A DNA stretch of 64,000 nt, taken from assembly GCF_012927455.1 (NCBI RefSeq), contig NZ_JABBPE010000002.1, forward strand, positions 558,001-622,000, written 5' to 3'. The position numbers and the translations under genes were made by a program. Shown here in pieces: positions 9,405 to 64,000 of this stretch (positions within the stretch are counted from its first letter, which is position 1; each line of letters starts with the position of its first letter). A model generated the notes under the pieces. It searched no databases and was not told the DNA's origin. It was given only the letters and a program-made list of their open reading frames with translations. This DNA comes from Polaromonas sp. Its GTDB lineage: Bacteria; Pseudomonadota; Gammaproteobacteria; Burkholderiales; Burkholderiaceae_C.

Positions 9405-9460
9405 AATTAGGCCTCCAATCCAGTATCCACGGGCGCAAGCAGCTATTAAATTAATAGCAT
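9405..9460 (+). repeat. Dispersed two-hairpin repeat, copy 1
   Basis: aattaggcctccaatccagtatccacgggcgcaagcagctattaaattaatagcat. Confidence 0.85.
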
Positions 9461-9497
9461 TTGTGAGGTGCGCACGGCCGCAGAGGAAGACGCGCCA

Positions 9498-9797
9498 CTA
9501 CCCGTAAATTAAAGCGCCCACGATGACCGCCGCGTCCAGGCCCAGCCAGGCAATGCACGGCAGGTAAATATTCTTGTCTTTTCTCTGCAGCCCGTACCAG
9601 AACCAGAGGATGGCCGAGAGGAAATACGCGCTCCACGACAGCACCGAAACGCCGGCCGCCTGGTGTCCGACCCAGATGGTCAGAACCTGCGGAACGGTCA
9701 TGAGCAGGGTAAAAATCGACATGCCGCCCAACAGGCGACTGAGCAAGGTGTCGGGCCGGGCGGCCGGGCCTGGGGGCGTGCTGGGATCGGGTGCCAT
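9498..9797 (-). CDS. SemiSWEET/PQ-loop family transporter
   Basis: LLGGMSIFTLLMTVPQVLTIWVGHQAAGVSVLSWSAYFLSAILWFWYGLQRKDKNIYLPCIAWLGLDAAVIVGALIYG; 3 TM with PQ motif. Confidence 0.75.
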   Translation of the reverse strand: MAPDPSTPPGPAARPDTLLSRLLGGMSIFTLLMTVPQVLTIWVGHQAAGVSVLSWSAYFLSAILWFWYGLQRKDKNIYLPCIAWLGLDAAVIVGALIYG

Positions 9798-9895
9798 GGT
9801 TGTCTCCTGGTGTCGTGGATTGCTCGAAACAAACTTCTCCTCCCCAGCTGCGCCAATGCGTGCGGCGCTGTACCTGGCCCCGCCCAGCCCTAGCG

Positions 9896-10288
9896 CTAAA
9901 ACATCGTGTTGTTATTCGCGGCGCTGCCCGGCACCACCTGAAGCACGTCCCAGTGCTCAACCACCTTGCCATCAGCATCCAGGCGAAAGATATCCATGCC
10001 GGCCCAGTCTTTGTCGCTGTCGGTGGGCCAGACCTGGCGACAGTGGAGCACGACGAAATTGTCTTCAGCAACCGCGCGCTGGAAGTACACACGTTTGCCC
10101 GGGTACTCGCTCGCCATGCGTTCAAAGTAATCGATAAAGGCCTGCTTGCCGTCGGCGACATGCGGGTTGTGCTGGGTGTAGGTCTCGCCCACATAGCGCT
10201 GCACCGCCTCGGCGGGCTGGCACTGATTGAACATCAGGTCATAAAAAGCCATCACGGCTTCCTTGTTGCGTTCGAGCGTGTTGCTCAT
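9896..10288 (-). CDS. SnoaL-like/NTF2-like polyketide cyclase family protein
   Basis: [58 protein letters not shown]...[36 protein letters not shown]. Confidence 0.85.
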
Positions 10289-10484
10289 AATGTTTTCCTT
10301 GGTGAAGTAACTAAGCGCAATGGGCAAAGGTTTTCGGCAGAACTTGCCATTTTTACCGGGGAAAACCAGCTTGCCAAGGACTGAATCGCCTTGCCGTGCA
10401 GGATGCGACGGCAAAAGTCGGCGCGTTTTCAGCCACGTTGAAGGCCACCAGGGGCCGGCCGCCTGGCCATTTCCGAACAAAACC

Positions 10485-10535
10485 GGGCTCTAGACCAATA
10501 GCGACAGGCGCGAACAGCTATGAAATCTATAGCAC
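10485..10535 (+). repeat. Dispersed two-hairpin repeat, copy 2
   Basis: gggctctagaccaatagcgacaggcgcgaacagctatgaaatctatagcac. Confidence 0.85.
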
Positions 10536-10579
10536 ATTGCGTTGGCTACGGTGTGCCGGAATGTTAAACCGCCGGTCCC

Positions 10580-10651
10580 AAATCAGCCACCAAATCAGCC
10601 ACCAAATCAGCCACTAAATCAGCCACTAAATCAGCCGCTAAATCAGCCGTT
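10580..10651. repeat. Short tandem repeat, six 12-bp units (aaatcagccacc/t)
   Basis: Read directly: aaatcagccacc x2, aaatcagccact x2, aaatcagccgct, aaatcagccgtt; overlaps the 3' end of the aldehyde dehydrogenase. Confidence 0.95.
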
Positions 10652-12110
10652 TTAGCAACCCGATGACCCGCCCAAAGCGCTTGCCATAAGGCGGATAAAA
10701 CAAATCGCCGCGCGCCCACTTCGACTGCACCAGCACCGGCTTTTGCTGCGTCAGGCGCACAAAGCCGGCCTCCCCGTGGTAGGCGCCCCAGCCGCTCTCG
10801 CCGACGCCGCCAAACGGCAGGTTCTCGTGGGCGATGTGCATCAGCGTGTCGTTGACGGTGACGCCGCCGCTCACGGTGCGCGCCAGCAGCTGCGCGCGCG
10901 CCGCCTTGTCGCTGCCAAAGCAGTACAGCGCCAGCGGCCGCGGCCTGGCGTTGATGTAGCCAATCGCCTGCTCCAGCGTGTCGTAGGGCAGCACCGGCAA
11001 GATGGGGCCGAAGATTTCTTCCTGCAGCAGCCGGCAGTCAGCTGCCGCGCCGAAGACCAGCACCGGCGCCATTTGCCGTGACGAGTTGCCGGCCGTGGCC
11101 GCAATTAAAGCGTCCGAAGCATTTAAAGCCCCCGGATCAATCACCTGCAAGCGCGCGCCTTGCGCTGCAGCCTGCACCAGCAAAGCCTGCAGGCGTTCAT
11201 GCTGGCGCGTGTTGATGATGGCGGCGTAGTCCGGGTTGCCAACAATGACCGGAAACAGTCTGGCAACGGCGCGCGCAAAGGCCGCGGCAAAGGCCGCTTC
11301 CCGCCCCCTGGGCAGCAACACGTAATCGGGCGCGATGCAGGTCTGCCCGGCGTTAAGCAGCTTGCCGTGCGCGATCTTGAGGGCGACGCTGTCAAGATCG
11401 GCCGGCGCGCACGACGCATCGATGAGGCAAGGCGATTTGCCGCCCAGCTCCAGCGTGGTCGGTGTCAGATTGGCTGCCGCAGCCGCGGCGACTTTTCGGC
11501 CCACTGCGGTCGAGCCGGTAAAGAAGAGATGGTCAAACGGCAGGCTGACAAATTCGGCTGAAAAACCGCCGTCGCCCTGCACCACGCACAACTCCTCTGG
11601 CGCAAAGACCTTTCCAATCAATTCGGCCAGCAGCGCCGAGGTCTGCGGCGTCAACTCGCTGGGTTTCAGCATCACACGGTTGCCCGCTGCCAGCGCCGTG
11701 ATGACCGGGCCCAGCGCCAGCTGCAGCGGGTAATTCCAGGGCGACACCACACCCACCACGCCCAGCGGCTGGCGCTGCAGATAGGCGCGCGAAGGCTGAA
11801 GATACAGTGGCGTGCGCACCTTCACCGGCTTCATCCATTGGGGAAGCTTTTTAAGCGTGTTCGACAGCAGCGTACGCAGCACAAACAGGTCGGCAATCTC
11901 GGTCAGCTGCGCCGAGCGCACGCCAAAATCGGCATGCACAGCCCGCGCCAGCGCGCCGGCGTTGTCATCCAGCAAGGCCTTGACGCGCAGCAAGCGGTCG
12001 CGGCGCAAAGCCAGCGGCACTTCTACCTGGGCGCGGCTGGCGCGCTGCTGGGCATCAAACAGCAGACGCAGGCTGGCAAGGGGTGGGATGGCGGGCGTGG
12101 AGGAAGTCAT
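10638..12110 (-). CDS. Aldehyde dehydrogenase, coniferyl aldehyde dehydrogenase-like
   Basis: MTSSTPAIPPLASLRLLFDAQQRASRAQ...PWNYPLQLALGPVITALAAGNRVMLKPSE...LELGGKSPCLID...NAGQTCIAPDYVL; ALDH catalytic motifs. Confidence 0.88.
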   Translation of the reverse strand: MTSSTPAIPPLASLRLLFDAQQRASRAQVEVPLALRRDRLLRVKALLDDNAGALARAVHADFGVRSAQLTEIADLFVLRTLLSNTLKKLPQWMKPVKVRTPLYLQPSRAYLQRQPLGVVGVVSPWNYPLQLALGPVITALAAGNRVMLKPSELTPQTSALLAELIGKVFAPEELCVVQGDGGFSAEFVSLPFDHLFFTGSTAVGRKVAAAAAANLTPTTLELGGKSPCLIDASCAPADLDSVALKIAHGKLLNAGQTCIAPDYVLLPRGREAAFAAAFARAVARLFPVIVGNPDYAAIINTRQHERLQALLVQAAAQGARLQVIDPGALNASDALIAATAGNSSRQMAPVLVFGAAADCRLLQEEIFGPILPVLPYDTLEQAIGYINARPRPLALYCFGSDKAARAQLLARTVSGGVTVNDTLMHIAHENLPFGGVGESGWGAYHGEAGFVRLTQQKPVLVQSKWARGDLFYPPYGKRFGRVIGLLKRLI

Positions 12111-12309
12111 CCGGGGATGATAGAGGCCGCGGTGCGCCCTGCGCCAGGCTGCGCTGCCCTGCCCTGCCCTGCTCACAAAGCGATGCATTTTTGTGCCCAC
12201 CCGCCGGCTTGAACGGGGCTATAAACGGGCTGAACTGGCTGGCAACCATTTCAAGTGCGGCGCAGCCGCCCGTTCCTGTGCAACACCAACGCGCTTAAGG
12301 AGACACCGC

Positions 12310-12671
12310 ATGGCCCGCTACATTGATGGATTCGTGCTGCCCGTACCCAAAAAAATGTCGATGCCTACCGCCGTATCGCGCGCAAGGCCGGCAAGGTCTG
12401 GCGCGAACATGGCGCACTCGAGTACATCGAATGCCTCGCAGACGATGTGAAGCCGGGGAAGGTCACCTCCTTCCCGCAGAGCGTCAAGCTCAAGGCGGGC
12501 GAGACCGTGGTGTTTTCATGGATCGTTTACAAGTCGCGCAAGCACCGCGACAAGGTCAACGCCAAGGTGATGAAAGACCCACGCCTCGCCGCCATGATGA
12601 ACTCGAAGAAGCTGCCCTTTGACGCCAAGCGCATGTTTTGGGGCGGCTTCAAGACCCTCATCGAACTGTGA
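12310..12671 (+). pseudogene. DUF1428 family protein, split by a frameshift at an A7 tract
   Basis: MARYIDGFVLPVPKK in frame 1 up to A7 (12349-12355); continuation NVDAYRRIARKAGKVWREHGALEYIECLADDVKPGKVTSFPQSVKLKAGETVVFSWIVYKSRKHRDKVNAKVMKDPRLAAMM...GGFKTLIEL in frame 0. Confidence 0.85.
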
Positions 12672-12710
12672 GTCGGCCGACCCGCTGGGGCGCCGCAGAA
12701 GGCCGCAGAG

Positions 12711-12765
12711 CGCTATCACTTAAATAGCTACTCGCGCCCGTGTCTATTGGGCTAGAGGCCGATTT
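12711..12765 (-). repeat. Dispersed two-hairpin repeat, copy 3
   Basis: cgctatcacttaaatagctactcgcgcccgtgtctattgggctagaggccgattta (reverse orientation). Confidence 0.85.
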
Positions 12766-13015
12766 AGCTCCTAATCCAGCGACCCAGGCCAGCCTTGACG
12801 CCAGCGCCACACTTCAGCCCTGGCCCCATATCCTGCCCGAGCAGGTGCGCGCCCTGGCCCAGATCCTCGCCAGCAGCACCGGCCCGCTGGCCCTGCCAGC
12901 CATCGAAGCGCGCTTCAAAAGCAAAGGCCCGTGGAAAAAGGGTTTGCCCCGCATCCTGGATACGCTGGAAGCGCTGGGCCGGGCGCGGCGCGAGAGGGAT
13001 GGCTGGCGCAGTTGA
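12740..13015 (+). CDS. Hypothetical protein/fragment (PWKKGLPRILDTLEALGRAR motif)
   Basis: 91 aa ORF; first codons overlap a dispersed repeat copy. Resembles a C-terminal segment I associate with larger (DNA methyltransferase-like) proteins, not verified. Confidence 0.4.
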   Translation: MSIGLEADLAPNPATQASLDASATLQPWPHILPEQVRALAQILASSTGPLALPAIEARFKSKGPWKKGLPRILDTLEALGRARRERDGWRS

Positions 13016-13121
13016 AAAAGGCTGGGAAAAAGCCCATATGGCCACTTGCAGCTATCAGTCAAACGTTTGACGCAGCCACACCTTCAGTTTAGTATTACAT
13101 CTGTAATAACGTAAAACCATC

Positions 13122-13346
13122 ATGCACACTCTCAAACTCACCCAAATCGGCAATTCTGTAGGCGCAATTTTTCCCAAGGAACTACTCGCGCAGATGCGGC
13201 TGGAGAAAGGCGACGAGTTTTATGTGACCGACACGCCCGACGGTCTGCGCATCACGACGCACAACCCTGACTTTGAAGAGCAGATGCGGGTTGGCCGCGA
13301 GATCATGAAGGAACGGCGTGCTGTGCTGCGCGAGTTGGCCAAATGA
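13122..13346 (+). CDS. AbrB/SpoVT family antitoxin
   Basis: MHTLKLTQIGNSVGAIFPKELLAQMRLEKGDEFYVTDTPDGLRITTHNPDFEEQM; AbrB swapped-hairpin pattern, followed by Doc. Confidence 0.88.
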   Translation: MHTLKLTQIGNSVGAIFPKELLAQMRLEKGDEFYVTDTPDGLRITTHNPDFEEQMRVGREIMKERRAVLRELAK

Positions 13347-13792
13347 CGGCGGCCTGGCGCTGGATCGACCGCGCAGTATTGATTGCCGTGCATGAGATGC
13401 AACTGGCGGAACACGGCGGCGCCGCCGGTTTGCGCGATGAAACCTTGCTCGACTCCGCGCTGGGCCGGCCGCTCAACCTGGCCGCTTATGGCGAACCCGA
13501 TGCTGCCGCACTGGCTGCAGCCTACGGTTACGGCATTGCCCGCAACCACGCTTTCATTGACGGCAACAAGCGCACCGCGCTGGTGGCGGCCGAGTTGTTT
13601 CTTCGCCTTAACGACTGGCGCCTTGTGGTGACTGATGCGGATTACGTGCTCACCATGCTGGCCGTCGCCTCGGGCGACATCACTGAAGAAGAATTCGCCG
13701 CCTGGCTGCGCGCGCATGCCAGCGTGCGCCCAAAAGGCTCAGGCCTCCCCCAGCCCCCTGCTGTCCACTCCAAACCCAAGGCCTTCCCATGA
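13343..13792 (+). CDS. doc: Doc-type toxin (Fic/Doc, death on curing)
   Basis: Fic motif HAFIDGNKR; GLRDETLLDSALGRP; ATGA overlap with antitoxin. Confidence 0.92.
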   Translation: MTAAWRWIDRAVLIAVHEMQLAEHGGAAGLRDETLLDSALGRPLNLAAYGEPDAAALAAAYGYGIARNHAFIDGNKRTALVAAELFLRLNDWRLVVTDADYVLTMLAVASGDITEEEFAAWLRAHASVRPKGSGLPQPPAVHSKPKAFP

Positions 13793-14292
13793 CCCTCAGT
13801 TCCGTTCAACGATTCAAGCCCAGTCACTACGCTTTGGCCGTCGCGCTGCTGCTGACCGCCTGCAGCCGGGCCAGCAGCGAGCAGGTCGGCGCGGTCGACA
13901 CGGTGTTCAAGTTTCTCGGGCCTGACCACAAGATCGTGGTCGACGCCTACGACGACCCCAAGGTGAGCGGCGTGACCTGCTACGTATCGCGCGCCAAGAC
14001 CGGCGGCATCAAGGGCGGGCTGGGCCTGGCCGAAGACAAGGCCGAAGCCTCGATTGCCTGCCGGCAAACCGGCCCCATCAGCTTTGGCGCCAAGCCGCTG
14101 GACAAGCAGGAAGAGATGTTCAGCGAGCGCATCTCGCTGATCTTCAAGAAGCTGCGCGTGATACGCATGGTTGACAGCAAACGCAACACGCTGGTCTACC
14201 TGACTTACTCTGACCGCATCATTGAGGGCTCGCCGCAAAACAGCGTGACGGCCGTGCCGGTGCCTGCGGGGACGGTGATCCCGGTGAAGTGA
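13789..14292 (+). CDS. creA: CreA family protein
   Basis: EQVGAVDTVFKFLGPDHKIVVDAYDDPKVSGVTCYVSRAKTGGIKGGLGLAEDKAEASIACRQTGPI; characteristic CreA sequence. Confidence 0.9.
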   Translation: MTLSSVQRFKPSHYALAVALLLTACSRASSEQVGAVDTVFKFLGPDHKIVVDAYDDPKVSGVTCYVSRAKTGGIKGGLGLAEDKAEASIACRQTGPISFGAKPLDKQEEMFSERISLIFKKLRVIRMVDSKRNTLVYLTYSDRIIEGSPQNSVTAVPVPAGTVIPVK

Positions 14293-14339
14293 GGGATGAA
14301 GTCATGCGGCGTCAGAATCTGCTCGCACCGCTTTGAGGG

Positions 14340-14729
14340 CTAGCTTTGCACAGACTCAACTTCCTCAGTCTTGAAATCTGCCGGCATAACGACTTCAAGC
14401 AGTTCAAGGTCGGGGCTGTGGCCAACCTCGCGGTGCCGAATCCCGGGCGGTTGGTACACGCAAGAGCCGGCCTCAAGCCGCACCAGGCCTTGCCCTTCGT
14501 ACTCGAATTCGATCCAGCCCTTCAACACGTAGACCAGCTGAAATCTGGCGCTGTGGCGATGCGGCTGGCTTGAGAAATCGATCCCCGCCGCGGCGCGGAT
14601 GACGTGGGCATCGACCAGGCCGCCGGTCGCCTGTTTGATGCCGAGATCTCGGTATTCGAAGAAAGAGCGCAGACCGCGCTCAAAGCTGGCACCTTGCGCG
14701 TGTGTGGCGACAAAATTTTGACTGGTCAT
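14340..14729 (-). CDS. Cupin domain protein
   Basis: HRHSARFQLVYVLKGWIEFEYEGQGLVRLEAGSCVYQPPGIRHREVGHSPDLELLEVVMP; internal ATG start chosen. Confidence 0.85.
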   Translation of the reverse strand: MTSQNFVATHAQGASFERGLRSFFEYRDLGIKQATGGLVDAHVIRAAAGIDFSSQPHRHSARFQLVYVLKGWIEFEYEGQGLVRLEAGSCVYQPPGIRHREVGHSPDLELLEVVMPADFKTEEVESVQS

Positions 14730-14894
14730 GCTGATCTCGATCCGGTGTGAATAAACCCTGAGCGTCAGGCCAGCATCTTGAGGGCGCGGGCCCGCTCTGC
14801 GTGATTGTGCGCAAGTGCAGGCCCGAGTCAAGCAAAGGCGATCACCGCCTGACGCGTCGCCACGCTGATCTGGCATTTTTTAGAGCAAAAACTG

Positions 14895-14941
14895 GCCATA
14901 ACCCAATATCGGTGGGTGCAAGCAGCTATCAAAACAAGAGC
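14895..14941 (+). repeat. Dispersed two-hairpin repeat, copy 4 (diverged)
   Basis: gccataacccaatatcggtgggtgcaagcagctatcaaaacaagagc. Confidence 0.75.
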
Positions 14942-15051
14942 ACCTAACCTGCCGATCATCGCCTCGCCGGCAGGGCTTTTCCGCAGTGTTAGCATGAAAA
15001 GCCAGCCACAGCAGCCTCATGGCAGCAGATTGCACACATAGTCAAACGACC

Positions 15052-15966: not shown

Positions 15967-16050
15967 GGCGCAGCGGTTGCGCGCCGCCGGCATTCACCGC
16001 ACCCGGCGTTTCAGCCGGTCGGGGCCGGCCGCCGCCTCACTTCCGTAACT

Positions 16051-16105
16051 AAATATGCCTCTAGCCCAATAAGGACGGGCGTAAGCAGCTATTAAAACAG
16101 GAGCA
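16051..16105 (+). repeat. Dispersed two-hairpin repeat, copy 5
   Basis: aaatatgcctctagcccaataaggacgggcgtaagcagctattaaaacaggagc. Confidence 0.9.
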
Positions 16106-19766: not shown

Positions 19767-19774
19767 AAAACGCC

Positions 19775-20528: not shown

Positions 20529-20584
20529 AAATATGGCTGTAGCCCAAAGAGTATGGGCGTGAGTAGCTACTTATTTGATAGCAC
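20529..20584 (+). repeat. Dispersed two-hairpin repeat, copy 6
   Basis: aaatatggctgtagcccaaagagtatgggcgtgagtagctacttatttgatagca. Confidence 0.8.
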
Positions 20585-22972: not shown

Positions 22973-22984
22973 AAATGACCGCTG

Positions 22985-23087
22985 ATTCCGTTTCTAAATC
23001 ATTCGTGAACGCGAAGGCGAAGCGACGACAGTACAAACGTACAGCTAGCGAAGCCGACAAAGTGTACGGATGATTTAGAAATGGAAT
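22985..23087. repeat. 103-bp imperfect palindrome with 22-bp arms (MITE/attenuator-like)
   Basis: attccgtttctaaatcattcgt (22985-23006) vs acggatgatttagaaatggaat (23066-23087): 20/22 complementary. Confidence 0.8.
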
Positions 23088-23524
23088 GACTAGAACTGAA
23101 TTGCGTAGCCGGAAAGCTGCCGGTTGCCAGGATCCGCTCCCGTTTGCAATGCGGGTACTCATCAAGCGCCCCAGCAACTCTTGAAGTCGCCAGACCGATC
23201 ATTTGTCTCGGCCGACGGTGCGCGGGTACATGCCGGACACGGCCATCGGCTGGTCGCCGACTACGAAGCGCGCCACCGCGCGGTGTTATCAGCCACCAGC
23301 ACGCGCCGATGTGGCAGCCGGGGCCGCACAGCTCGGCCTTGGTGACAAGGCAATCTTGGGCTCGACCCTGGGGGTGGATCAGCGCGCAGACCTCGCACTC
23401 GCCGCCATCTGGCACAGCGTAGTAGCCGGCCATGCAGCGCTAATGGCAGGCTTTGATTCAAACTGGGGCAAGTACCTGCCGTCCAGTCTGTATCGCCATG
23501 CCGAGCGCCATCGCCCTTTTCATG

Positions 23525-23583
23525 CATCAAATCGGCCTATAGGCCATAAGGGACGGGCGCAAGCAGCTATCAATAGCATAGCA
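23525..23583 (+). repeat. Dispersed two-hairpin repeat, copy 7
   Basis: catcaaatcggcctataggccataagggacgggcgcaagcagctatcaatagcatagca. Confidence 0.85.
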
Positions 23584-25468: not shown

Positions 25469-25523
25469 AACTAGACTTACAGCCCAATAGACACGAGCGC
25501 GAGCAGCTATTAAATGCATAGCA
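25469..25523 (+). repeat. Dispersed two-hairpin repeat, copy 8
   Basis: aactagacttacagcccaatagacacgagcgcgagcagctattaaatgcatagca. Confidence 0.85.
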
Positions 25524-26296: not shown

Positions 26297-26350
26297 AACA
26301 GGCCTCTAGCCCACAAGGGATGGGCGCAATCAGCTATCAATAGAATAGCA
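26297..26350 (+). repeat. Dispersed two-hairpin repeat, copy 9
   Basis: aacaggcctctagcccacaagggatgggcgcaatcagctatcaatagaatagca. Confidence 0.9.
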
Positions 26351-26612: not shown

Positions 26613-26669
26613 AAAATTATGCCTCTAGCCCAATAAAATCGGGCGCAAGCAGCTATTAATTTCATAGCA
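26613..26669 (+). repeat. Dispersed two-hairpin repeat, copy 10
   Basis: aaaattatgcctctagcccaataaaatcgggcgcaagcagctattaatttcatagca. Confidence 0.92.
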
Positions 26670-30285: not shown

Positions 30286-31560
30286 TTAGGCCAGAAATTC
30301 TGAAAACGCAATAAACCGCACCAGGTCGCCGTGCGCAATCGCCTGGTCAGGCGGGTTGTCGACCAGCCCGTCTCCCCAGACCGCAGACGTGAGTACGCCT
30401 GAGCTCTGGTTGTCGAACAGCGCCAGCCCGCCCGTGGCATCGTGCTTGACGCGCAAGAATTCGCGGCGCTTATCGGCTCTGGCCCAATCAAAATGGGCGG
30501 TCAGTGCTATTGATTTAATAGCAAGCCGGGTGCCGCCCTGGAGCTTGAGGAGGAAGGGCCTGACCAGCAGCAGGAAGGTGACAAAGCTGGAAACCGGGTT
30601 GCCTGGCAGGCCGATGAAGTGGCTGGCGCCGATTTTTCCATACGCAAACGGCTTGCCCGGCTTCATGGCGATCTGCCAGAGCTTGAGATCGCCCAGCGCC
30701 TGCACGGCTGGCTTGATGTGGTCTTCTTCACCGACCGAGACGCCCCCGCTGGTCAGAATCAGGTCGTGCTGCTGGCTGGCGCGCTCCAGTGCGGCCACGG
30801 TCGCATCCAGCCGGTCGGGCACGATGCCCAAATCGGTGACTGTGCAGCCCAGCCGTAGCAGCAGCGCCCGCAAAAAGAATCGGTTGGAGTTGTAGATGGC
30901 GCCGGGCTTCATGTCAGCAGGTGCCACGTCGCCGGGCATGACCAGTTCGTCGCCGGTAGAAAACAGCGCCACCCGCACGCGCGCAGCCACCTGGAGCTGG
31001 TCAAAGCCGATGCTGGCCGCCAGGCCTAGCGCCGCGGGCGTGAGGCGCTCACCGCGGCGCAGCACCGCAGAGCCGCTGGCGACATCTTCACCGCGGCGGC
31101 GAATCCACTGGCCAGGTTTGGGGTGCAGCCGGATGCGAACGCCCGGGGATTCTGCAGCGCCGGCGTCCAGCGTTTCACAGTCTTCCTGCATCACCACGGC
31201 ATCGGCGCCGGGCGGGATGGGCGCGCCGGTGAAGATACGCGCCGCCGAAGCCGGCGCCAGCGGGTGGCCACTGCTGCCGGCGGGAATGCGCTGGTTGACC
31301 TGCAAAACGGTGGTGAAATTTTCCCAGTCGGCGCAGCGTACGGCGTAGCCATCCATGGCGCTGTTGTCGTGCGCTGGCACGTCCAGGCTGGACAGCAGGT
31401 CTTGCGCCAGCACGCGGCCGTCGGCATCAAAAGTGGAGACGGTTTCAATACCCGGCAGGGGTGCCGCTTGGGCCAGCAGCTCGGCCAGCGCCTCTTCCAG
31501 AGGTTTGAGAGACTTGCGGGGCGCACGTTCGGGTGCTGCTGGCATGTCAAATTTAGTCAT
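30286..31560 (-). CDS. moeA: Molybdopterin molybdenumtransferase MoeA
   Basis: DVPAHDNSAMDGYAVR, IFTGAPIPPGADAVVMQEDCE, LTSGGVSVGEEDHIKP, GLPGNPVSSFVTFLLLVRP. Confidence 0.96.
   Translation of the reverse strand: MTKFDMPAAPERAPRKSLKPLEEALAELLAQAAPLPGIETVSTFDADGRVLAQDLLSSLDVPAHDNSAMDGYAVRCADWENFTTVLQVNQRIPAGSSGHPLAPASAARIFTGAPIPPGADAVVMQEDCETLDAGAAESPGVRIRLHPKPGQWIRRRGEDVASGSAVLRRGERLTPAALGLAASIGFDQLQVAARVRVALFSTGDELVMPGDVAPADMKPGAIYNSNRFFLRALLLRLGCTVTDLGIVPDRLDATVAALERASQQHDLILTSGGVSVGEEDHIKPAVQALGDLKLWQIAMKPGKPFAYGKIGASHFIGLPGNPVSSFVTFLLLVRPFLLKLQGGTRLAIKSIALTAHFDWARADKRREFLRVKHDATGGLALFDNQSSGVLTSAVWGDGLVDNPPDQAIAHGDLVRFIAFSEFLA
30474..30525 (+). repeat. Dispersed two-hairpin repeat, copy 11, inside moeA
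   Basis: cggctctggcccaatcaaaatgggcggtcagtgctattgatttaatagcaag. Confidence 0.85.
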
Positions 31561-32204: not shown

Positions 32205-32258
32205 CTATCAATTACATAGCTGCTTGCGCCCGCTGTATATGGGCTAGAGCTCGATTTA
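32205..32258 (-). repeat. Dispersed two-hairpin repeat, copy 12
   Basis: ctatcaattacatagctgcttgcgcccgctgtatatgggctagagctcgattta (reverse). Confidence 0.88.
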
Positions 32259-37723: not shown

Positions 37724-39409
37724 ATGCCCCTGCCTCCTGCCCCGACCAAACGTGCCGCCCTACTCTCCCCCGATGCGCTCGACGCGCCGGCCCGCTCATC
37801 CGCCAAGGTGTCACGAAAGACGGACAACTCTGAATTGGCCCAAAAGCCGTCTCCAGTGCTCAATCTGTTTGACAGCCGGCTCTCCGGAAGTGCCGAGCAT
37901 CCGGCCGCTTTTAAAGGAAAAGAGCCTTCCAGCTTAACAAAGACGGGCGTTGACAGCTACCAAAAAGAGAGCTTATTGCGACGGCAACCAGCCTTACGAC
38001 CCAAGAAAACCAAACACGCAGGACCGGCCAAGCTGTTTGTGTTGGACACCAATGTGCTGATGCACGACCCGATGTGCTTGTTTCGTTTTGAAGAGCACGA
38101 CATCTTTCTGCCCATGATCGTGCTCGAGGAGCTCGACGGTCATAAAAAAGGGATGACTGAAGTCGCCCGCAATGCCCGCCAGACCAGCCGCACCCTTGAT
38201 GCACTGGCTGGTGCCCAGGGTGCCGACATCGCCAAGGGTCTTAAGCTGGACACCACCGGGCACCGTGAAGCCGGCGGCTGCCTGTTTTTCCAGACCAAGC
38301 CGCTGGATTACACGCTGCCCATGAGCCTGCCGCAAGGCAAGGCCGACAACCAGATACTCGGCGTGGTGGAGGCGCTGCGCAAGGAATACGCGCCGCGCGA
38401 GGTAGTCCTGGTGTCCAAGGACATCAACATGCGCGTCAAGGCGCGTGCTCTCGGCTTGATGACCGACGACTACCAGAACGACAAGGTGCTGGAAGACGGC
38501 GACCTGCTGTACTCCGGCTCGCTGGCCCTGCCGACTGACTTCTGGACGCGTCAAAGCAAAACCATTGAGAGCTGGCAGCAAGGCAGCCACACCTTCTACC
38601 GCATCACGGGCCCCATCGTGCCCAGCCTGCTGATCAACCAGTTCGTATTTTTTGAAACGCCTGGAGAGCCACCGCTGTATGCCCGCGTCACTGAAATTCA
38701 GGCCAAAACGGCCGTTCTGAAAACCTTGAAGGATTACACCCATCTGAAAAACGCCATTTGGGGCGTCACCATGCGCAACCGTGAGCAAAACTTTGCGATG
38801 AACCTGCTGATGGACCCGGAAGTAGACTTTGTCACGCTGGCAGGTACGGCCGGCACCGGCAAAACGCTGATGGCGCTGGCCAGCGGCCTTACGCAGGTGC
38901 TGGATGACCGCCGTTACACCGAAATCATCATGACACGCGCCACGGTATCGGTAGGCGAGGACATCGGCTTTCTGCCCGGTACCGAAGAGGAAAAAATGGG
39001 GCCGTGGATGGGCGCGCTCGACGACAACTTGGAAGTGCTGGGAAAAACCGACGGCGGCTCTGGCGAATGGGGACGCGCCGCGACCAACGAGCTGATCCGT
39101 TCACGCATCAAAGTCAAAAGCATGAACTTCATGCGCGGCCGCACTTTCCTGAACAAGTACGTCATCATTGACGAGGCGCAAAACCTGACGCCCAAGCAGA
39201 TGAAGACCCTGATCACGCGAGCCGGTCCGGGCACCAAGATTGTCTGCATGGGCAACTTGGCGCAAATCGATACACCCTACCTCACCGAAGGCTCTTCAGG
39301 AATGACTTTCGCGGTGGACCGCTTCAAGGGCTGGCCGCATGGTGGGCATATCACGCTGGCGCGCGGAGAGCGTTCCCGCTTGGCCGATTTCGCCAGCGAG
39401 GTGCTTTGA
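37724..39409 (+). CDS. PhoH family protein with N-terminal PIN domain
   Basis: KLFVLDTNVLMHDPMCLFRFEEHDIFLPMIVLEELD (PIN) and VTLAGTAGTGKTLMALASGL...ATVSVGEDIGFLPGTEEEKMGPWMGALDDNLEVL...YVIIDEAQNLTPKQMKTLITRAG. Confidence 0.95.
   Translation: MPLPPAPTKRAALLSPDALDAPARSSAKVSRKTDNSELAQKPSPVLNLFDSRLSGSAEHPAAFKGKEPSSLTKTGVDSYQKESLLRRQPALRPKKTKHAGPAKLFVLDTNVLMHDPMCLFRFEEHDIFLPMIVLEELDGHKKGMTEVARNARQTSRTLDALAGAQGADIAKGLKLDTTGHREAGGCLFFQTKPLDYTLPMSLPQGKADNQILGVVEALRKEYAPREVVLVSKDINMRVKARALGLMTDDYQNDKVLEDGDLLYSGSLALPTDFWTRQSKTIESWQQGSHTFYRITGPIVPSLLINQFVFFETPGEPPLYARVTEIQAKTAVLKTLKDYTHLKNAIWGVTMRNREQNFAMNLLMDPEVDFVTLAGTAGTGKTLMALASGLTQVLDDRRYTEIIMTRATVSVGEDIGFLPGTEEEKMGPWMGALDDNLEVLGKTDGGSGEWGRAATNELIRSRIKVKSMNFMRGRTFLNKYVIIDEAQNLTPKQMKTLITRAGPGTKIVCMGNLAQIDTPYLTEGSSGMTFAVDRFKGWPHGGHITLARGERSRLADFASEVL
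37921..37976 (+). repeat. Dispersed two-hairpin repeat, copy 13 (diverged), inside phoH-like gene
   Basis: agagccttccagcttaacaaagacgggcgttgacagctaccaaaaagagagct. Confidence 0.7.
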
Positions 39410-42698: not shown

Positions 42699-43217
42699 CT
42701 ATTGTCCCAGTTGGTCGATGCGGGCATCCACCTCACTGGAAAAACGCTCGATGAACATAAGGCTTCTAACTTGCTGGGCGGCCGCCGCAAAGTCCTTGTT
42801 GATGTCGAGCATCTGCTCTATTTTTGATAGCTGCTCGCGCCCGCTATCATTAGATAGTGACGCTATTTCCTCCAAATCCTGAACGGTCTTTGCGTCCTCC
42901 AACGCTTCACGCCACTGCATTTGCTGCATCAAAAAATCGATTGGCATGGCCGTATTTTTTTCGGCCTGAATGGGTGCGCCGTGCAACTCGCATAAATAGC
43001 CGGCGCGGCGCAACGGATCTTTAAGGCGCTGGTAGGCCTCGTTGATGCGCACCGACCATTGCATGGCGATACGCTGGGCGGCTACGCCTTGGGCGGCAAA
43101 CTTGTCAGGGTGCGCTTCGCGTTGCAACTCTTTCCAGCGCGTATCCAGCACCGCGCGGTCCTGCGCAAACTGCATGGGGATCTGAAAGAGTTCAAAGTCG
43201 GTGGATTGGAGGTTCAT
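42699..43217 (-). CDS. hscB: Fe-S assembly co-chaperone HscB
   Basis: [43 protein letters not shown] (HPD) ...; contains a dispersed-repeat segment. Confidence 0.95.
42813..42861 (-). repeat. Dispersed two-hairpin repeat, copy 14 (diverged 5' half), inside hscB
   Basis: Minus strand ...actatctaatgatagcgggcgcgagcagctatcaaaaatagagcagatg. Confidence 0.7.
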
Positions 43218-49796: not shown

Positions 49797-49850
49797 AATA
49801 AGCCTCTAGCCCTATAAGTACGGGCGCTAGCAGCTATCAATTTAATAGCG
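49797..49850 (+). repeat. Dispersed two-hairpin repeat, copy 15
   Basis: aataagcctctagccctataagtacgggcgctagcagctatcaatttaatagcg. Confidence 0.9.
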
Positions 49851-51068: not shown

Positions 51069-52619
51069 ATGCTTTATAAAGTATATGAAACCCAGCGCAC
51101 CTTGATGGAGCCCTTTGTTGACTTTGCGCAGGCAGCTGCAAAAGTCTACGGCAACCCCTTATCGCCTTTTGGCAAAAATCCGTTCGCCCAGCGCTTGGCG
51201 GCCGGTTACAGCCTGCTGTACCGCTTGGGTAAAGATTACGAAAAGCCAGCCTTTGGTATTCAAACGGTCGATGTCGACGGCACCAGCGTGGCGATTCACG
51301 AGCGGGTGGAACTCGACAAGCCTTTTTGTGAATTGCGCCGTTTTAAACGTTTCTCGGACGACCCGGCCACGCTGACCAAGCTCAAGGGCCAGCCGGCTGT
51401 CCTGATCGTGGCACCCTTGTCGGGCCATTACGCCACACTGCTGCGCGATACCGTTCAGACCATGCTGAAGGACCACAAGGTCTACATCACTGACTGGAAG
51501 AACGCCCGCACGGTGCCCTTGTCCGACGGCACCTTCCATCTCGACGACTACGTCAACTATGTGCAGGAATTTGTCCGCCACCTGCAGGCCAAATATGGCA
51601 ATTGCCACGTCATCAGTGTGTGCCAGCCCACCGTACCGGTGTTTGCCGCCATTTCGCTGATGGCCTCGCGCGGCGAAACCACGCCGCTGTCCATGGTGAT
51701 GATGGGTGGCCCTATCGACGCACGCCGGTCGCCGACGGCCGTCAACAATCTGGCCACCACCAAGCCTTACGAATGGTTCGAAAACAATGTGATTTACCGC
51801 GTGCCAAGCAACTTTCCCGGTGCAGGCCGGCGCGTTTACCCAGGTTTTCTGCAGCACACCGGCTTTGTCGCCATGAACCCTGACCGCCATGCCAACAGCC
51901 ATTACGACTACTTCCAGGACCTGATCAAGGGTGATGACGCCAGCACCGAAGCACACCGCAAGTTTTACGACGAATACAACGCGGTGCTCGATATGGACGC
52001 CGACTACTACCTCGACACCATCAAAACCGTGTTCCAGGAGTTCAAACTTGTCAACGGCACCTGGGATGTTAAATCCGTTACGGGCAAGGCCGAGCGCGTG
52101 AAGCCAGCCGATATCAAGACCACCGCTGTCATGACGGTGGAAGGCGAGCTTGACGACATATCGGGCGCCGGGCAGACCAAGGCAGCACTCGACATGTGCA
52201 GTGGCGTTCCCGCCGGCAATAAAAGGCACCTTGAAGCGAAAGGCGCCGGCCACTACGGTATTTTCAGCGGTCGCCGCTGGCAAAATATCGTCTATCCCTC
52301 CGTCAAAGCCTTCATTATTGACCATCATCAGGCCGCAGCCCAAGAAAATCGGGCGTCATCAGCTATTAAAACCATAGCAGCACCAGCTCCCGTAGTCCTG
52401 CCAAAACCGGCAGTGGAAGCGGTGCGCGTCGCGGTTGCAAAACCGCTGGCGCAAGCGACAAGCAAGCCCACTGCAAAGCCTGTAGAAAATCCGGTGGCAA
52501 AAGCGGTCGTGAAGGCCGCGGCAAAATCTGCTCCGAAGGCCGCTGCGCAGACCAGAGTACAGGCTGCCGCCAAGCCTGCTGCCAAGGCAATAGCCAGAAA
52601 GACCCCGCGCGGCAAGTGA
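51069..52619 (+). CDS. phaZ: Intracellular polyhydroxyalkanoate depolymerase with Lys/Ala/Pro-rich C-terminal tail
   Basis: MLYKVYETQRTLMEPFVDFAQAAAKVYGNPLSPF...HVISVCQPTVPVFAAISLMA...; tail VAKAVVKAAAKSAPKAAAQTRVQAAAKPAAKAIARKTPRGK. Confidence 0.9.
   Translation: MLYKVYETQRTLMEPFVDFAQAAAKVYGNPLSPFGKNPFAQRLAAGYSLLYRLGKDYEKPAFGIQTVDVDGTSVAIHERVELDKPFCELRRFKRFSDDPATLTKLKGQPAVLIVAPLSGHYATLLRDTVQTMLKDHKVYITDWKNARTVPLSDGTFHLDDYVNYVQEFVRHLQAKYGNCHVISVCQPTVPVFAAISLMASRGETTPLSMVMMGGPIDARRSPTAVNNLATTKPYEWFENNVIYRVPSNFPGAGRRVYPGFLQHTGFVAMNPDRHANSHYDYFQDLIKGDDASTEAHRKFYDEYNAVLDMDADYYLDTIKTVFQEFKLVNGTWDVKSVTGKAERVKPADIKTTAVMTVEGELDDISGAGQTKAALDMCSGVPAGNKRHLEAKGAGHYGIFSGRRWQNIVYPSVKAFIIDHHQAAAQENRASSAIKTIAAPAPVVLPKPAVEAVRVAVAKPLAQATSKPTAKPVENPVAKAVVKAAAKSAPKAAAQTRVQAAAKPAAKAIARKTPRGK
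52331..52380 (+). repeat. Dispersed two-hairpin repeat, copy 16, inside phaZ
   Basis: ggccgcagcccaagaaaatcgggcgtcatcagctattaaaaccatagcag. Confidence 0.82.
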
Positions 52620-58854: not shown

Positions 58855-58908
58855 AGCTATAATTTTGATAGCTATTTACGCCCGTCTTATATGGGCTAGA
58901 GCACTAAA
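58855..58908 (-). repeat. Dispersed two-hairpin repeat, copy 17
   Basis: tagctataattttgatagctatttacgcccgtcttatatgggctagagcacta (reverse). Confidence 0.88.
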
Positions 58909-58991
58909 ACATCAACTTTTATGCGATCGAGGCGGTGCGGACTGCGCAGCACAAAGGAAAAGCTTGAAGTGCCCGCCAATGGCTGATGACT

Positions 58992-60029
58992 TCAGGCCGG
59001 CAGCCCAGTCAGGCCCAGCACCTCGGGCTCGTAGGCATGCAGCGAAGGCGCGCCACCGGTGTGGATGAACAGCACGTTTTCATCGCGCTTGAAGTAGCCC
59101 TGGCGCGCCAGCCCGATCAGGCCGGCCATGATTTTTCCGGTGTACACCGGGTCCAGCAAGATTGCCTCGGTGCGCGCCAGCAACTGCACGGCTTCGACCA
59201 TGGCCGCGTTGGGCATTGAATACTTGGGCCGCCACCAGTCGCCAAAACTCAGCACCGCCTCGCGAGGAATCGTCAGTTTCAGGCCCAGCAAGTCGGCCAC
59301 GGCCTGCGCTTCTTGATGCACCAGCGGGTCCTGGTCGACCGGGTCGCGACTCACGCCGATGCCGATCAGCGGGATGTTGATGTGGTTGCCCAGAAAGCCG
59401 GCCAGCAGGCCACCATGCGTACCCGAGCTGCCCGAACCCACCACGATCTTGTCAATTTGCACACCCTGCTCAAAAAATTGCTGCTGCAGCTCCTGCGCGC
59501 AGGCCACATAACCCAAGCCACCGATGGCGTTGGAGCCACCGCCCGGCACGATGTAGCCTTTGCGGCCTGCCCCGGCCAGGTCATCCGAAACCTGCTGCAT
59601 AGCTTGCAGCATATTGGTGCCGGCGGGCACTACGGTGATGGCTTCAACGCCGAGCAGGCGGAACAAAAAGTTGTTGCCGCTGGCGTCAAGCCTGTAGCTG
59701 TTCGGCACGCGCTCTTCAATCACAAAGCGGCACTTCATGCCCTCCTTGATGGACGCCGACAGCGTGGCACGGCAATGGTTGGACTGTGGTGCGCCGCAGG
59801 TGATCAGCGTGTCGGCGCCCTGCGCCAGCGCGTCGGCCACCAGAAACTCCAGCTTGCGCGTCTTGTTGCCGCCGGGCGTCAGGCCCAGCATGTCGTCGCG
59901 CTTGATCCAGACATTGGGGCCGCCAGACGGTCCACAGGAGTTGCGCAGGGCTTGCGTGAAATTGGGTAAAAACTCCAGCGGCGTGACGCCCTGGGTGTAA
60001 CGGCGGCGCGGGAAACGGCTCAAATCCAT
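58992..60029 (-). CDS. D-cysteine desulfhydrase / ACC deaminase family PLP enzyme
   Basis: MDLSRFPRRRYTQGVTPLEFLPNFTQAL...WIKRDDMLGLTPGGNKTRKLEFLVADALAQGADTLITCGAPQSNHCRATL. Confidence 0.9.
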   Translation of the reverse strand: MDLSRFPRRRYTQGVTPLEFLPNFTQALRNSCGPSGGPNVWIKRDDMLGLTPGGNKTRKLEFLVADALAQGADTLITCGAPQSNHCRATLSASIKEGMKCRFVIEERVPNSYRLDASGNNFLFRLLGVEAITVVPAGTNMLQAMQQVSDDLAGAGRKGYIVPGGGSNAIGGLGYVACAQELQQQFFEQGVQIDKIVVGSGSSGTHGGLLAGFLGNHINIPLIGIGVSRDPVDQDPLVHQEAQAVADLLGLKLTIPREAVLSFGDWWRPKYSMPNAAMVEAVQLLARTEAILLDPVYTGKIMAGLIGLARQGYFKRDENVLFIHTGGAPSLHAYEPEVLGLTGLPA

Positions 60030-60147
60030 GAAACGGTACTCCAGTTGGGTTCAGTCAATGACAAGGCTTGCGCTTCCATTAAAACCGATCTCGTTCCGCC
60101 TGCGAAAGCAGCGCCGAAACCGGCGAATCAAGCACCGTAGCGTGGTG

Positions 60148-61689
60148 TCAGCTCAGTATCAGATTCTTGTAAACACCGCAGCCCACGAACCAGTCGTCCA
60201 GCTGCTCCACAAACGACATCTTGGTCTGCACTTTACCGGTCGTCGGGTTGGTGATCTCGTATTCAACCCAGCCCGGCTCCAGGCTGGCCTGATCGATGAT
60301 GGATTGGAGCAACTGGTTGCCATCGATGCCCGCAATGTCCTGGACCCGCGTGCCCACCTTGGCCGGGTTACCGCCAAAAGCCAGGTAGCAGCCTGCGCGA
60401 TCAAGGGCAAAAACGTACATGTCGCGGTCATGAAAGCCCTTGGCAGGGTTGCTCAGATCCCGCAGAAAAGCCTCTTTCGAAGTCTGGTTTCGGTGCGCCA
60501 TGGCCCGCTCGACCAGCTCGACCGCCTCTTCGGCCGAGCCCTGCTGCAGCCTGAACGACGCCACTGACTGCACCAGCGTGCTGGCGCGCCCTTCCAGATT
60601 GATAGCCTGCGTGACCGCGCGCGTCACCATGCCGGCATTGCGCTGCGTGATTTCGTCGAGCTGGCGCACCGCCGATGTGATCTCGCGCAAACCGGTACTT
60701 TGCTCGGTGCTGGAAACAGCGATCTGCGACATGTTTGCCGCCACTTCCCGGATACCGGCGACGACTTGCTCAATCGTGCTGCCAGCTGCCCTGATTTTCT
60801 GCACACTGTCGGAGATATGGCTGCTCGATACACCGATCAGCAAGCGAATTTCCTTGGCCGACTCGGCCGATCGCTTGGCCAGCGAGCGCACTTCACTGGC
60901 CACCACGGCAAAGCCCCGGCCCGACTCACCGGCACGCGCCGCTTCTACCGCTGCGTTGAGCGCCAGAATATTGGTTTGAAACGCCAGCCCATCGATGACG
61001 CTGACAATTTCGTCCATGCGCTTGGCGCTGCCCTGCACGGCCTCGACCGCATCAATCGCCTCGACCATGATGGCCGCCCCGCCGTTCGCCACCTGGCGGA
61101 CCTCAGCGGCTTGTGTGTTGGCATGGCTGGCGCTGCTCGCGTTGGCGTGAACGGTGGAAGACAGTTGCGCTACGCTGGCGGCAGTCTGCTCCAGGCTGGC
61201 CGCCTGCTGCTCGGTGCGGTCAGACAGGTCACGGTTGCCGATGGCCAGGCTTTTACCCGAATGCGCCACGAAGGCGGCGTTGCTGCGAACGTTGGCCACC
61301 ATGCCCGACAAGGTGCGGCTGAGCCGGCCCATGGCAATACTCAAGCTGCCCAGTTCGTCCTGACTGCGGTTTACAGCCAGGTTCAGACGCAAATCGCCGG
61401 CCACCATTTTTTCTGTCGCAACGATCAGTTGGCCCAGATCCTGCGCCACGCTGCGGTAAAGCGCCCCTAAGAAATAGATTAGCAGGGTCAGCCCGACGCC
61501 ATTGGCAATCGCCACGCGAATGAAGCCGGTGCTGGGGTTGACATCCCCCAACAACTGCCAGGCCACAACCAGCAGCGGAACAACGCAGACCCCTGCAAGC
61601 AGCATCAACTTGCCTGCAAAACGCATGCGGCGCATCAACCAGATGCCGGGATTCAACAGCTTGCCAAATAACATTTGTTTCTTCCGCAA
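60148..61689 (-). CDS. Methyl-accepting chemotaxis protein with C-terminal Cache-like domain
   Basis: HAMP-like then signalling hairpin ([57 protein letters not shown]); C-terminus [51 protein letters not shown]. Confidence 0.92.
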
Positions 61690-61807
61690 TCAAGCGCATT
61701 CAAGGGTAGAGCGTGACCACGGCGCTTTACATCGGCCGACAGCTACCTCACGAAAAAAGCAGTGTGGCTTAACACCTTTTGGCTTGATTCAGCAAACAAA
61801 CGACTGT

Positions 61808-62296
61808 TCAGCCGCCAGTTTGGGCGCCAAGTTGGGCACGGAATGCGCCGATCACTTCGGCTGGTGCCTGCACCAGTTCGATCAAGACGCCCTCGCCCGC
61901 AATGGGAAACTCTTCGCTGGGCTTGGGATGCAGAAAGCAGATATCAAAGCCTGCCGCGCCCTTGCGAATGCCGCCGGGCGCAAAGCGCACTCCCTGGGCC
62001 GTCAGCCACGCCACCGCCTTGGGCAAGTCGTCAATCCACAGGCCGACATGGTTGAGCGGCGTGGTGTGGACGGCGGGCTTTTTGTCGATATCCACCGGCT
62101 GCATCAGGTCCACCTCGACCTTGAACGGACCACTGCCAATGACGCAAATGTCTTCATCGACATTCTCGCGCTCGCTGACAAAATTGCCAGTGACTTCAAG
62201 CCCCAGCATGTCGACCCACAAGGTACGCAGACGGTCCTTGCTGGTGGCGCCAATGGCGATTTGCTGGATACCGAGGACTTTGAAGGGACGTGTCAT
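61808..62296 (-). CDS. VOC family protein (methylmalonyl-CoA epimerase/glyoxalase-like)
   Basis: [35 protein letters not shown]...[29 protein letters not shown]; beside the carboxylase gene. Confidence 0.8.
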
Positions 62297-62367
62297 TTTA
62301 TTTTCCTAGACGAACAATCAACTGCTGCAAGGCAGCCCAAAGTGACAAGCGTGAGGGTTTTCTACAA

Positions 62368-62460
62368 GCAGGGGCCGCGGAACCGGCTTTGCCGGGCCGC
62401 AGGCGCAGCGGCCCCCTCGGGGGGGCAAGAAGCTACGCGAAGCGAGCGACCGTGGGGGCC
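62368..62460. repeat. GC-rich REP-like intergenic element
   Basis: ggggccgcggaaccggctttgccgggccgcaggcgcagcggccccctcgggggggcaagaagctacgcgaagcgagcgaccgtgggggcc; same family as the insertion in moaE. Confidence 0.75.
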
Positions 62461-62464
62461 ATAT

Positions 62465-64000
62465 TCATGCAAACTCCACAATCGGCTGGTCCACGCTCAG
62501 GCTTTCGCCTTTTTGCGCCAGCACCTTGTCGACCACGCCATCGGCCGTGGCAAACAGCACGTTTTCCATTTTCATGGCTTCAATCACGGCCACGCGTTCA
62601 CCGGCCTGGACTTTTTGCCCCACCTGCACCGCCACTTCAACCAGCAGGCCGGGCATGGGCGACAACACGAAGCGGCTCAGATCCGGCGGCGCCTTGAACG
62701 GCATCAAGGCATGAAGCTCGGCGGCGCGCGGCCCCAGCACCATCGCATCGAGTTGCGTCCCGTTGTGAATAATGCGCACGGCCAGAGGATTTCTGCCCAC
62801 GCCACGTTCGACCTGCGCCGCAAAAGGCTGGCCATTCACCGTGCCGCGAATACGCGCGCCACCCAAATGCCAGTTGCTACAAATTTCATAGCGCTTTCCG
62901 CCCGTTTCTATTGAGCTAGCGCCCGAAATAGCTTGAAAATCCCGGAGGATTGCGGGATGTGGCGTATTTACGCCGCCGGCACCCAGGCCAATCACCACGT
63001 ATTCCTTGCCCACCGTCACGCCATGGCCCGGCATCTGGCCGCTGATGCCCGCGGCCCGGACCCGAATGCGGCGGTACACATAGGCGGCCAATGCCACCAG
63101 AAAACCGGGATCATCATGCGGCACATCTTCGGCACGGAAACCCTGGCTGTAATTTTCGGCAATAAACCCGGTGTTGAAGTCACCAGCTACAAACTTGGGG
63201 TGCGCCAGCAAAGCCGCCTGAAACGGAATGTTGCTGCTGACGCCGCGAATCACAAAGCGGTTGAGCGCATCACGCATCTTGGCAATCGCATCGTTTCTGT
63301 CGCTGCCATGAACGATCAGCTTGGCAATCATCGAGTCGTAAAACATCGAAATTTCGCCGCCGTCCTGCACACCGGTATCGACCCGCACGCCAAAAAGATG
63401 CTCGGTGTCGGCCGCAAACATGGTTTCTTTGGGCGGCTGAAAGTGCACCAGCCGGCCGATGGATGGCAAGAAGCCGCGAAACGGATCTTCGGCATTGATG
63501 CGGCATTCCATCGCCCAGCCATTGCGCTTGACCTGATCTTGCGTGAGCGGCAGCTTTTCGCCGGCGGCCACGCGAATCATTAGTTCCACCAAATCCAGCC
63601 CGGTAATGCATTCCGTCACCGGATGCTCAACCTGCAGACGGGTGTTCATTTCAAGAAAGTAAAAGCTTTGGTCCTTGCCGACAACAAACTCCACGGTGCC
63701 AGCGGATTGGTAGTTCACGGCTTTGGCCAGCAGCACCGCCTGCTCGCCCATGGCCTTGCGCGTCTCGCCGCTGATGAAGGGCGATGGCGCCTCTTCAATC
63801 ACTTTCTGGTGACGGCGCTGGATCGAGCATTCGCGCTCATTCAAGTAGATAACATTGCCGTGGCTATCGCCCAGCAACTGGATTTCGATGTGGCGTGGTT
63901 CTTCAACAAATTTCTCGATGAACACCCGGTCGTCGCCAAAGCTGCTCTTCGCCTCGTTGCGGCAGCTGGTAAAGCCTTCCAGCGCTTCCTTGTCATTGAA
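62465..64000 (-). CDS. Acetyl/propionyl-CoA carboxylase alpha subunit (biotin carboxylase + BCCP), partial at right edge
   Basis: HIEIQLLGDSHGNVIYLNERECSIQRRHQKVIEEAPSP...AVIEAMKMENVLFATADGVVDKVLA; reading frame continues past the window edge. Confidence 0.95.
   Translation of the reverse strand, partial: FNDKEALEGFTSCRNEAKSSFGDDRVFIEKFVEEPRHIEIQLLGDSHGNVIYLNERECSIQRRHQKVIEEAPSPFISGETRKAMGEQAVLLAKAVNYQSAGTVEFVVGKDQSFYFLEMNTRLQVEHPVTECITGLDLVELMIRVAAGEKLPLTQDQVKRNGWAMECRINAEDPFRGFLPSIGRLVHFQPPKETMFAADTEHLFGVRVDTGVQDGGEISMFYDSMIAKLIVHGSDRNDAIAKMRDALNRFVIRGVSSNIPFQAALLAHPKFVAGDFNTGFIAENYSQGFRAEDVPHDDPGFLVALAAYVYRRIRVRAAGISGQMPGHGVTVGKEYVVIGLGAGGVNTPHPAILRDFQAISGASSIETGGKRYEICSNWHLGGARIRGTVNGQPFAAQVERGVGRNPLAVRIIHNGTQLDAMVLGPRAAELHALMPFKAPPDLSRFVLSPMPGLLVEVAVQVGQKVQAGERVAVIEAMKMENVLFATADGVVDKVLAQKGESLSVDQPIVEFA
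62873..62922 (-). repeat. Dispersed two-hairpin repeat, copy 18, inside carboxylase alpha subunit gene
   Basis: gttgctacaaatttcatagcgctttccgcccgtttctattgagctagcgc (reverse). Confidence 0.82.

What the first reader, a model, noticed from the sequence alone, without database searches (positions are those of the whole stretch)
9405..62922. Abundant dispersed ~50-nt element with a conserved two-hairpin architecture (about 18 copies in 64 kb)
Reading the sequence I find ~18 copies of one element, in both orientations. Consensus about GCCTCTAGCCCAATAAGGACGGGCGCAAGCAGCTATTAAATTAATAGCA. It can form two stems: GCCC-N9-GGGC, then GCTATTAA-A-TTAATAGC. The linker GCAAGCA and the stems are conserved, while loop bases vary in a way that suggests selection or copying as a structured unit. 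13 copies sit in intergenic gaps, usually close to a gene end. I know of REP/BIME families and RAYT-mobilised repeats, but do not recognise this consensus as a named family. No transposase or RAYT gene is adjacent to any copy here, so how it spreads is unknown.
Basis: partly seen in the sequence, partly recalled or inferred. Interest (0 to 1): 0.78.

Follow-up and report, generated by a model that had tools for sequence, protein, structure and literature searches.

The report
RAYT-linked repeat, also inside proteins
A short DNA repeat present in an estimated 850 or so copies in this bacterium is most likely a non-autonomous mobile element served by a single REP-type transposase gene that keeps a matching piece at its own end; about a quarter of the copies lie in frame inside ordinary protein genes.

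Summary
In detail: 18 copies in the window at E<1e-3, about 242 in 1.26 Mb of the same genome, none in reversed sequence. The element is about 70 nt, longer than reported, and occurs patchily in Comamonadaceae (52 of 126 genera sampled). Two hairpins can form, but no genome shows covariation in the stems. The missing mobiliser is probably a single-copy RAYT gene elsewhere in the genome. Right after the stop codon its orthologues carry a sense-oriented partial copy, joined at fixed spacing to a conserved motif (10 of 107 flanks score at least 8 bits against 1 of 1070 shuffles). New here: 58 of 242 copies lie inside coding genes in preferred frames (0.6 expected from synonymous-codon shuffles). 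Some are true insertions of +23 to +25 residues (DapE, MoeA paralogue); others are length-neutral and unexplained. The family was glimpsed before as unexplained motif pairs in Polaromonas naphthalenivorans and Acidovorax ebreus (PMC5217627). It lacks the GTAG/CGTC tag, clustering and two-sided RAYT flanking of classical REPs: a new variant of a known kind (RAYT-linked REP). Mobilisation itself is inferred, not shown.

The parts
9409..9459 (+). element copy, intergenic
   Evidence: nhmmer E 9.8e-12
10485..10534 (+). element copy, intergenic
   Evidence: E 8e-11
12712..12760 (-). element copy, intergenic, edge of a short ORF call
   Evidence: E 1.2e-11
14894..14942 (+). element copy, intergenic
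   Evidence: E 6.3e-7
16056..16105 (+). element copy, intergenic
   Evidence: E 2.7e-13
20534..20583 (+). element copy, intergenic
   Evidence: E 1.2e-10
23534..23583 (+). element copy, in a weakly coding ORF or intergenic
   Evidence: E 6e-11
25478..25523 (+). element copy, intergenic
   Evidence: E 1.4e-9
26300..26350 (+). element copy, intergenic
   Evidence: E 3.7e-12
26620..26669 (+). element copy, intergenic, best in window
   Evidence: E 4.5e-15
30475..30523 (+). element copy inside moeA (30286-31560, minus strand), no length change against homologues
   Evidence: E 5.2e-7
32205..32250 (-). element copy, intergenic
   Evidence: E 2.3e-11
37926..37972 (+). element copy inside PhoH/PIN gene (37724-39409)
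   Evidence: E 1.9e-4
42814..42851 (-). element copy inside hscB-like gene (42699-43217)
   Evidence: E 1.5e-5
49801..49849 (+). element copy, intergenic
   Evidence: E 1.3e-14
52331..52379 (+). element copy inside PHB depolymerase gene (51069-52619)
   Evidence: E 3.1e-9
58856..58902 (-). element copy, intergenic
   Evidence: E 1.3e-11
62875..62924 (-). element copy inside biotin-dependent carboxylase gene (62465-63925), no length change against homologues
   Evidence: E 4.9e-8

Best explanation
The repeat is a ~70-nt non-autonomous mobile element of the RAYT-linked REP kind. A single-copy RAYT (HUH/Y1 transposase) of Comamonadaceae probably recognises it as single-stranded DNA, perhaps at hairpin 1 with its NYAG foot and hairpin 2 (GCTATNAAATTNATAGC), and scatters copies. 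Copies survive mostly close to gene 3' ends and between convergent genes, and as in-frame peptide insertions where proteins tolerate them; they then decay independently. Shown: copy number, spread across genera, RAYT presence, the element-like piece fused to the RAYT stop codon, intragenic frame bias, real insertions in DapE and the MoeA paralogue. Inferred: that this RAYT moves the element, the strand and hairpin it uses, and that the RAYT-linked piece is source rather than passenger.
For: RAYT orthologue in 34 of 35 genomes rich in the element. 3' flanks of RAYT genes match the element profile, all in sense at the stop codon: 10/107 at >=8 bits against 1/1070 dinucleotide shuffles; GCTAY to TGTCCC is 15-16 nt in 40 of 43 flanks, across genera, unlike independent insertions. 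Genomes whose RAYT flank has AGCTAY are rich in copies 11/12, others 22/66, Fisher 2e-4. In 5 of 5 cases tested over 28 nt the RAYT flank scores best with the variant of its own group. Convergent gaps enriched (57 copies in 19.8 kb against 24 in 41.8 kb divergent) and median 40 nt to gene 3' ends. Net insertions +25 aa in DapE and +23 aa in the MoeA paralogue against PDB homologues, about the 70-nt length of the element.
Against: G249, a complete genome with 32 strict copies, has no RAYT. 26 of 35 zero-copy genomes have a Y1/RAYT hit too. The associations are not corrected for phylogeny; the 5 of 5 match rests on small margins in some cases and fails for the interior 22 nt in the own genome, and an earlier seven-genome scoring gave no clean diagonal. 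Only one side of the RAYT carries the element, and the RAYT also has its own GGGGTCAGA inverted repeats. Some high-copy genomes have RAYT flanks without the element motif (G182, G101, L213). No empty-site comparison succeeded for intergenic copies.
Confidence: 0.62

Rival explanations
1. The repeat is mobilised by some other, unidentified enzyme, and the RAYT 3' flank is merely an old insertion of one copy that was inherited with the gene.
For: Copies favour 3' ends of genes in general; G249 has copies and no RAYT; zero-copy genomes keep RAYTs.
Against: The junction to TGTCCC has the same spacing in many genera, and the RAYT flank tends to follow the local repeat variant rather than staying frozen.
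Confidence: 0.2
2. It is a functional site (DNA uptake motif, nucleoid-protein or replication site) that accumulates by selection or biased transformation rather than a mobile element; length-neutral copies in genes arise by point change or conversion.
For: Many intragenic copies are length-neutral against homologues, e.g. LpxB, LigA, CoaBC; A- or T-tracts at -46..-44 and -36..-34 are conserved as tracts in either base without pairing, as for double-strand recognition.
Against: True insertions of about 70 nt in DapE and the MoeA paralogue; strong patchiness inside genera; some 50 conserved positions are many for an uptake motif.
Confidence: 0.12
3. It acts mainly as a transcribed RNA structure at gene 3' ends (terminator or mRNA stabiliser).
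For: Two potential hairpins; placed near 3' ends and between convergent genes.
Against: No orientation bias to the upstream gene (57 same, 44 opposite), no stem covariation, no T-run, single copies not unusually stable, many copies inside genes.
Confidence: 0.05

Closest known systems
GTAG REPs and RAYTs (REPtrons; PMC2817692, PMC3733652)
   Same: High-copy palindromic repeat, chiefly downstream of and between convergent genes, a RAYT in the genome with the repeat at its 3' end, occasional intragenic copies.
   Different: No conserved GTAG tag, two hairpins over ~70 nt instead of one of 20-40 bp, no head-to-head pairs or clusters, one-sided same-sense RAYT flank; RAYT framed by separate GGGGTCAGA inverted repeats.
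Rickettsia palindromic elements (RPE, CGTC class in PMC3733652)
   Same: Palindromic repeats inserted in frame in many unrelated proteins.
   Different: No CGTC tag, different host group, a RAYT is linked here, most copies are intergenic.
Motif pairs ATAGCT(N)22CAAAAG in Polaromonas naphthalenivorans CJ2 and GCTTAT(N)5AAGCG in Acidovorax ebreus (PMC5217627)
   Same: Same sequence family: a congener (G323) has 125 copies of the first pair, the number the paper gives for CJ2, with our GGGCGCAAGCAGCTAT core; the second is hairpin 1 of the relatives' variant.
   Different: That paper gives only motif pairs and their gene context, no element, transposase or insertion into proteins.
Betaproteobacterial repeat element BRE (PMC3110155)
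   Same: Dispersed repeat in Bordetella, Polaromonas and other betaproteobacteria, some copies in genes.
   Different: ~90 bp, 69% GC, often tandem, at most 29 copies; sequences were not compared here.

Membership tests
GTAG REP / RAYT system | GTAG tetranucleotide at one end of the palindrome | tested here: not met
   At the foot of hairpin 1: GTAG 35/182 own, 3/94 relatives; CTAG/CCAG commoner
GTAG REP / RAYT system | RAYT gene present in the host genome | tested here: met
   34/35 element-rich genomes; NF047646 80.3 bits, cut-off 80
GTAG REP / RAYT system | RAYT flanked on both sides by inverted copies of the repeat | tested here: not met
   Copy on the 3' side only, same sense; 5' side matches in 1/107 at >=8 bits
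GTAG REP / RAYT system | Hairpins maintained by compensatory changes | tested here: not met
   Pairing equals independence within genomes; stem 1 differs as a block between genomes
GTAG REP / RAYT system | Clusters or paired opposite copies (BIME/REPIN) | tested here: not met
   9 neighbour gaps <300 nt, 13.5 expected if uniform
GTAG REP / RAYT system | RAYT cleaves the repeat as ssDNA | not testable with these tools
   needs biochemistry
Rickettsia palindromic element (CGTC class) | In-frame insertion into protein genes | tested here: met
   58/242 in CDS, frame bias 23/28 and 13/13, +25 aa DapE, +23 aa MoeA paralogue
Rickettsia palindromic element (CGTC class) | CGTC tag at one end | tested here: not met
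   CGTC anywhere in 14/182 own copies
BRE (Bordetella) | ~90 bp GC-rich repeat sequence | not tested
   BRE sequence not fetched; differs by GC, length and tandem order as described in PMC3110155
Rfam RNA family | Match to any of 4227 covariance models | tested here: not met
   No element copy matched at gathering or E<=10

The most novel reading that the evidence does not exclude
Besides inserting, the element overwrites protein-coding DNA without changing its length, for example by annealing of single-stranded copies at partly matching sites during replication, so that a RAYT-linked repeat edits conserved enzymes (LigA, LpxB, CoaBC, MoeA) in place.
Probability: 0.17. Interest if true: 0.82.

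Novelty: new variant of a known kind. Interest (0 to 1): 0.58.

Why it matters
It gives a probable mobiliser and a natural history to one of the most abundant repeats of Comamonadaceae, and joins two groups usually treated apart, RAYT-linked intergenic REPs and protein-coding palindromic elements. With hundreds of copies, several species variants and in-frame insertions in enzymes of known structure, it makes the origin of intragenic repeats and RAYT specificity testable in culturable hosts.

Tried and rejected
Structured RNA: Rfam empty, no covariation, weak folding. Terminator: no orientation bias, no T-run. BIME/REPIN pairs: not enriched. A third upstream stem between the TTT and AAA tracts: no association (Fisher p=1). 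Intragenic hits as chance protein similarity: rejected by synonymous-codon shuffles (58 against 0.6). RNA model R1 on the own genome was capped at 150 scored candidates, so counts rest on patterns and nhmmer. Intergenic empty-site comparison: 82 syntenic pairs, only 1 with the element in the own genome alone, inconclusive. Species-specific scoring of flanks over seven genomes gave no clean diagonal; the later five-case test over 28 nt did. Taxonomy: genus taken as Polaromonas from RAYT best hits and from G323, probably P. naphthalenivorans CJ2; inference.

Full report
Observation. A 19-nt core gives 12 window matches against 0.02 expected. A profile built from 17 window copies (alignment A2) and iterated on three 400-kb stretches plus the window finds 242 copies at E<1e-3 in 1.264 Mb, 18 of them in the window, and none in the same sequence read backwards. 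The 16-mer core with two mismatches occurs 471 times in the whole 4.47-Mb genome against 5 for the control. By extrapolation the genome holds about 850 copies.

Anatomy. Anchored at AGCTA (position 0), conservation runs from -47 to about +22: an A/T tract at -46..-44, AAAT at -36..-33, GGCCTCTAGCCC, a variable loop, ACGGGCGCAAGC, then AGCTATNAAATTNATAGCA. Hairpin 1 is GCCC/GGGC here and mostly GCGCTT/AAGCGC, shifted by two positions, in other genera; hairpin 2 has a fixed 7-nt spacer. Within a genome pairing equals what independent columns would give, so single copies are not kept as paired structures. The A/T tracts keep AAA or TTT without matching each other.

Spread. A strict 13-base pattern occurs in 94 of 301 genomes of the family and 52 of 126 genera, with reversed controls near zero, and is patchy inside genera. 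Published motif pairs are this family: a congener, G323 (5.4 Mb, 9 contigs), has 125 copies of CTTTTG(N)22AGCTAT, the count PMC5217627 gives for P. naphthalenivorans CJ2, and these carry our core; the A. ebreus pair equals hairpin 1 of relatives.

Mobiliser. The genome has two RAYT-like genes. One, L113:7528-8223:-, belongs to a single-copy group found with PF01797 or profile A3 in 34 of 35 element-rich genomes. Its orthologues have, directly after the stop codon, a partial element in sense orientation, for example G108 TAA|AAACAGCCTCCAGCGCTTGCTGGATAAGCGCTAATAGCTATCAAATTTGATGTGTCCCC, G109 and L204 likewise. The element's ATAGC end is replaced by GAT(A/G)TGTCCC. Profile scores, fixed spacings and shuffles are, the copy-number association, the variant match. 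The RAYT is further framed by AATTGGGGTCAGATTCCAATT-like inverted repeats, nearly unique in the own genome, like the TIR-flanked RAYTs of PMC3733652. That the RAYT moves the element is inference, by analogy with the E. coli RAYT.

Genome context. 57 copies lie in convergent gaps (19.8 kb), 101 in co-directional (95.5 kb), 24 in divergent gaps (41.8 kb); median distance to gene 3' ends is 40 nt, to 5' ends 157 nt; orientation to co-directional genes is not clearly biased (57:44) (gene calls are from a simple codon-usage caller).

Copies in genes. 58 of 242 lie inside coding ORFs, 46 of these with strong coding scores. Where the anchor is intact, same-strand copies use one frame in 23 of 28 (peptides such as PLAQSGRAQAAIESIA) and opposite-strand copies one frame in 13 of 13 (AIKSIAxxARxxWARGL). 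Synonymous-codon shuffles of the same genes give 0.6 hits per replicate, codon-order shuffles 0; the copies have 52% GC in 63.5% GC genes. Six other genomes show the same, 70 of 210. Against PDB homologues DapE has +25 and the MoeA paralogue +23 residues at the element, PurL +11, ProA +4 to +9, whereas LpxB, LigA and CoaBC have no length change, nor do window MoeA and the carboxylase against family homologues. The length-neutral class has no proven mechanism; replacement by annealing of single-stranded copies, or point-wise drive, are both open.

Verdict. A new variant of RAYT-linked REPs: it works like one in abundance, placement and RAYT linkage, but fails the GTAG tag, two-sided flanking, pairing and clustering tests, and is unusual in its two-hairpin length and high in-frame share.

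Noticed in passing
window 22982-23088: A ~105-bp stretch recurs at 84-97% identity at several other places in the own genome and in congeners: another dispersed repeat.
   Followed up: no
L113, L093-L132, L193-L272 (RAYT 3' flanks): Distance from TGTCCC to TCTGACCC is 46-47 nt in 99 of 103 RAYT flanks; function unknown, perhaps the RAYT unit's own end.
   Followed up: partly
L114:549-1391:+: Second RAYT-like gene with an HTH-like C-terminus and different flanking repeats (TGGGGTCAGGTCTTGCAA).
   Followed up: no
L019:13531-14958 and window 30286-31560: Both MoeA paralogues of this genome carry an element copy, one as a 23-residue insertion, one length-neutral, at different sites.
   Followed up: partly
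L119 (genome G014): About 20 Y1_Tnp matches in G014, many split in two frames, i.e. an expanded IS200-like element in a genome also rich in the repeat.
   Followed up: no
L163-L172 (G005) and L180-L186 (G271): Genes of nearly the same length in two genera (963 and 957 nt) carry a copy at nearly the same place with nearly the same peptide (LALTHDQQAQAAIKIV / LALTHTEKAQAAIKII), which suggests a shared old insertion.
   Followed up: no
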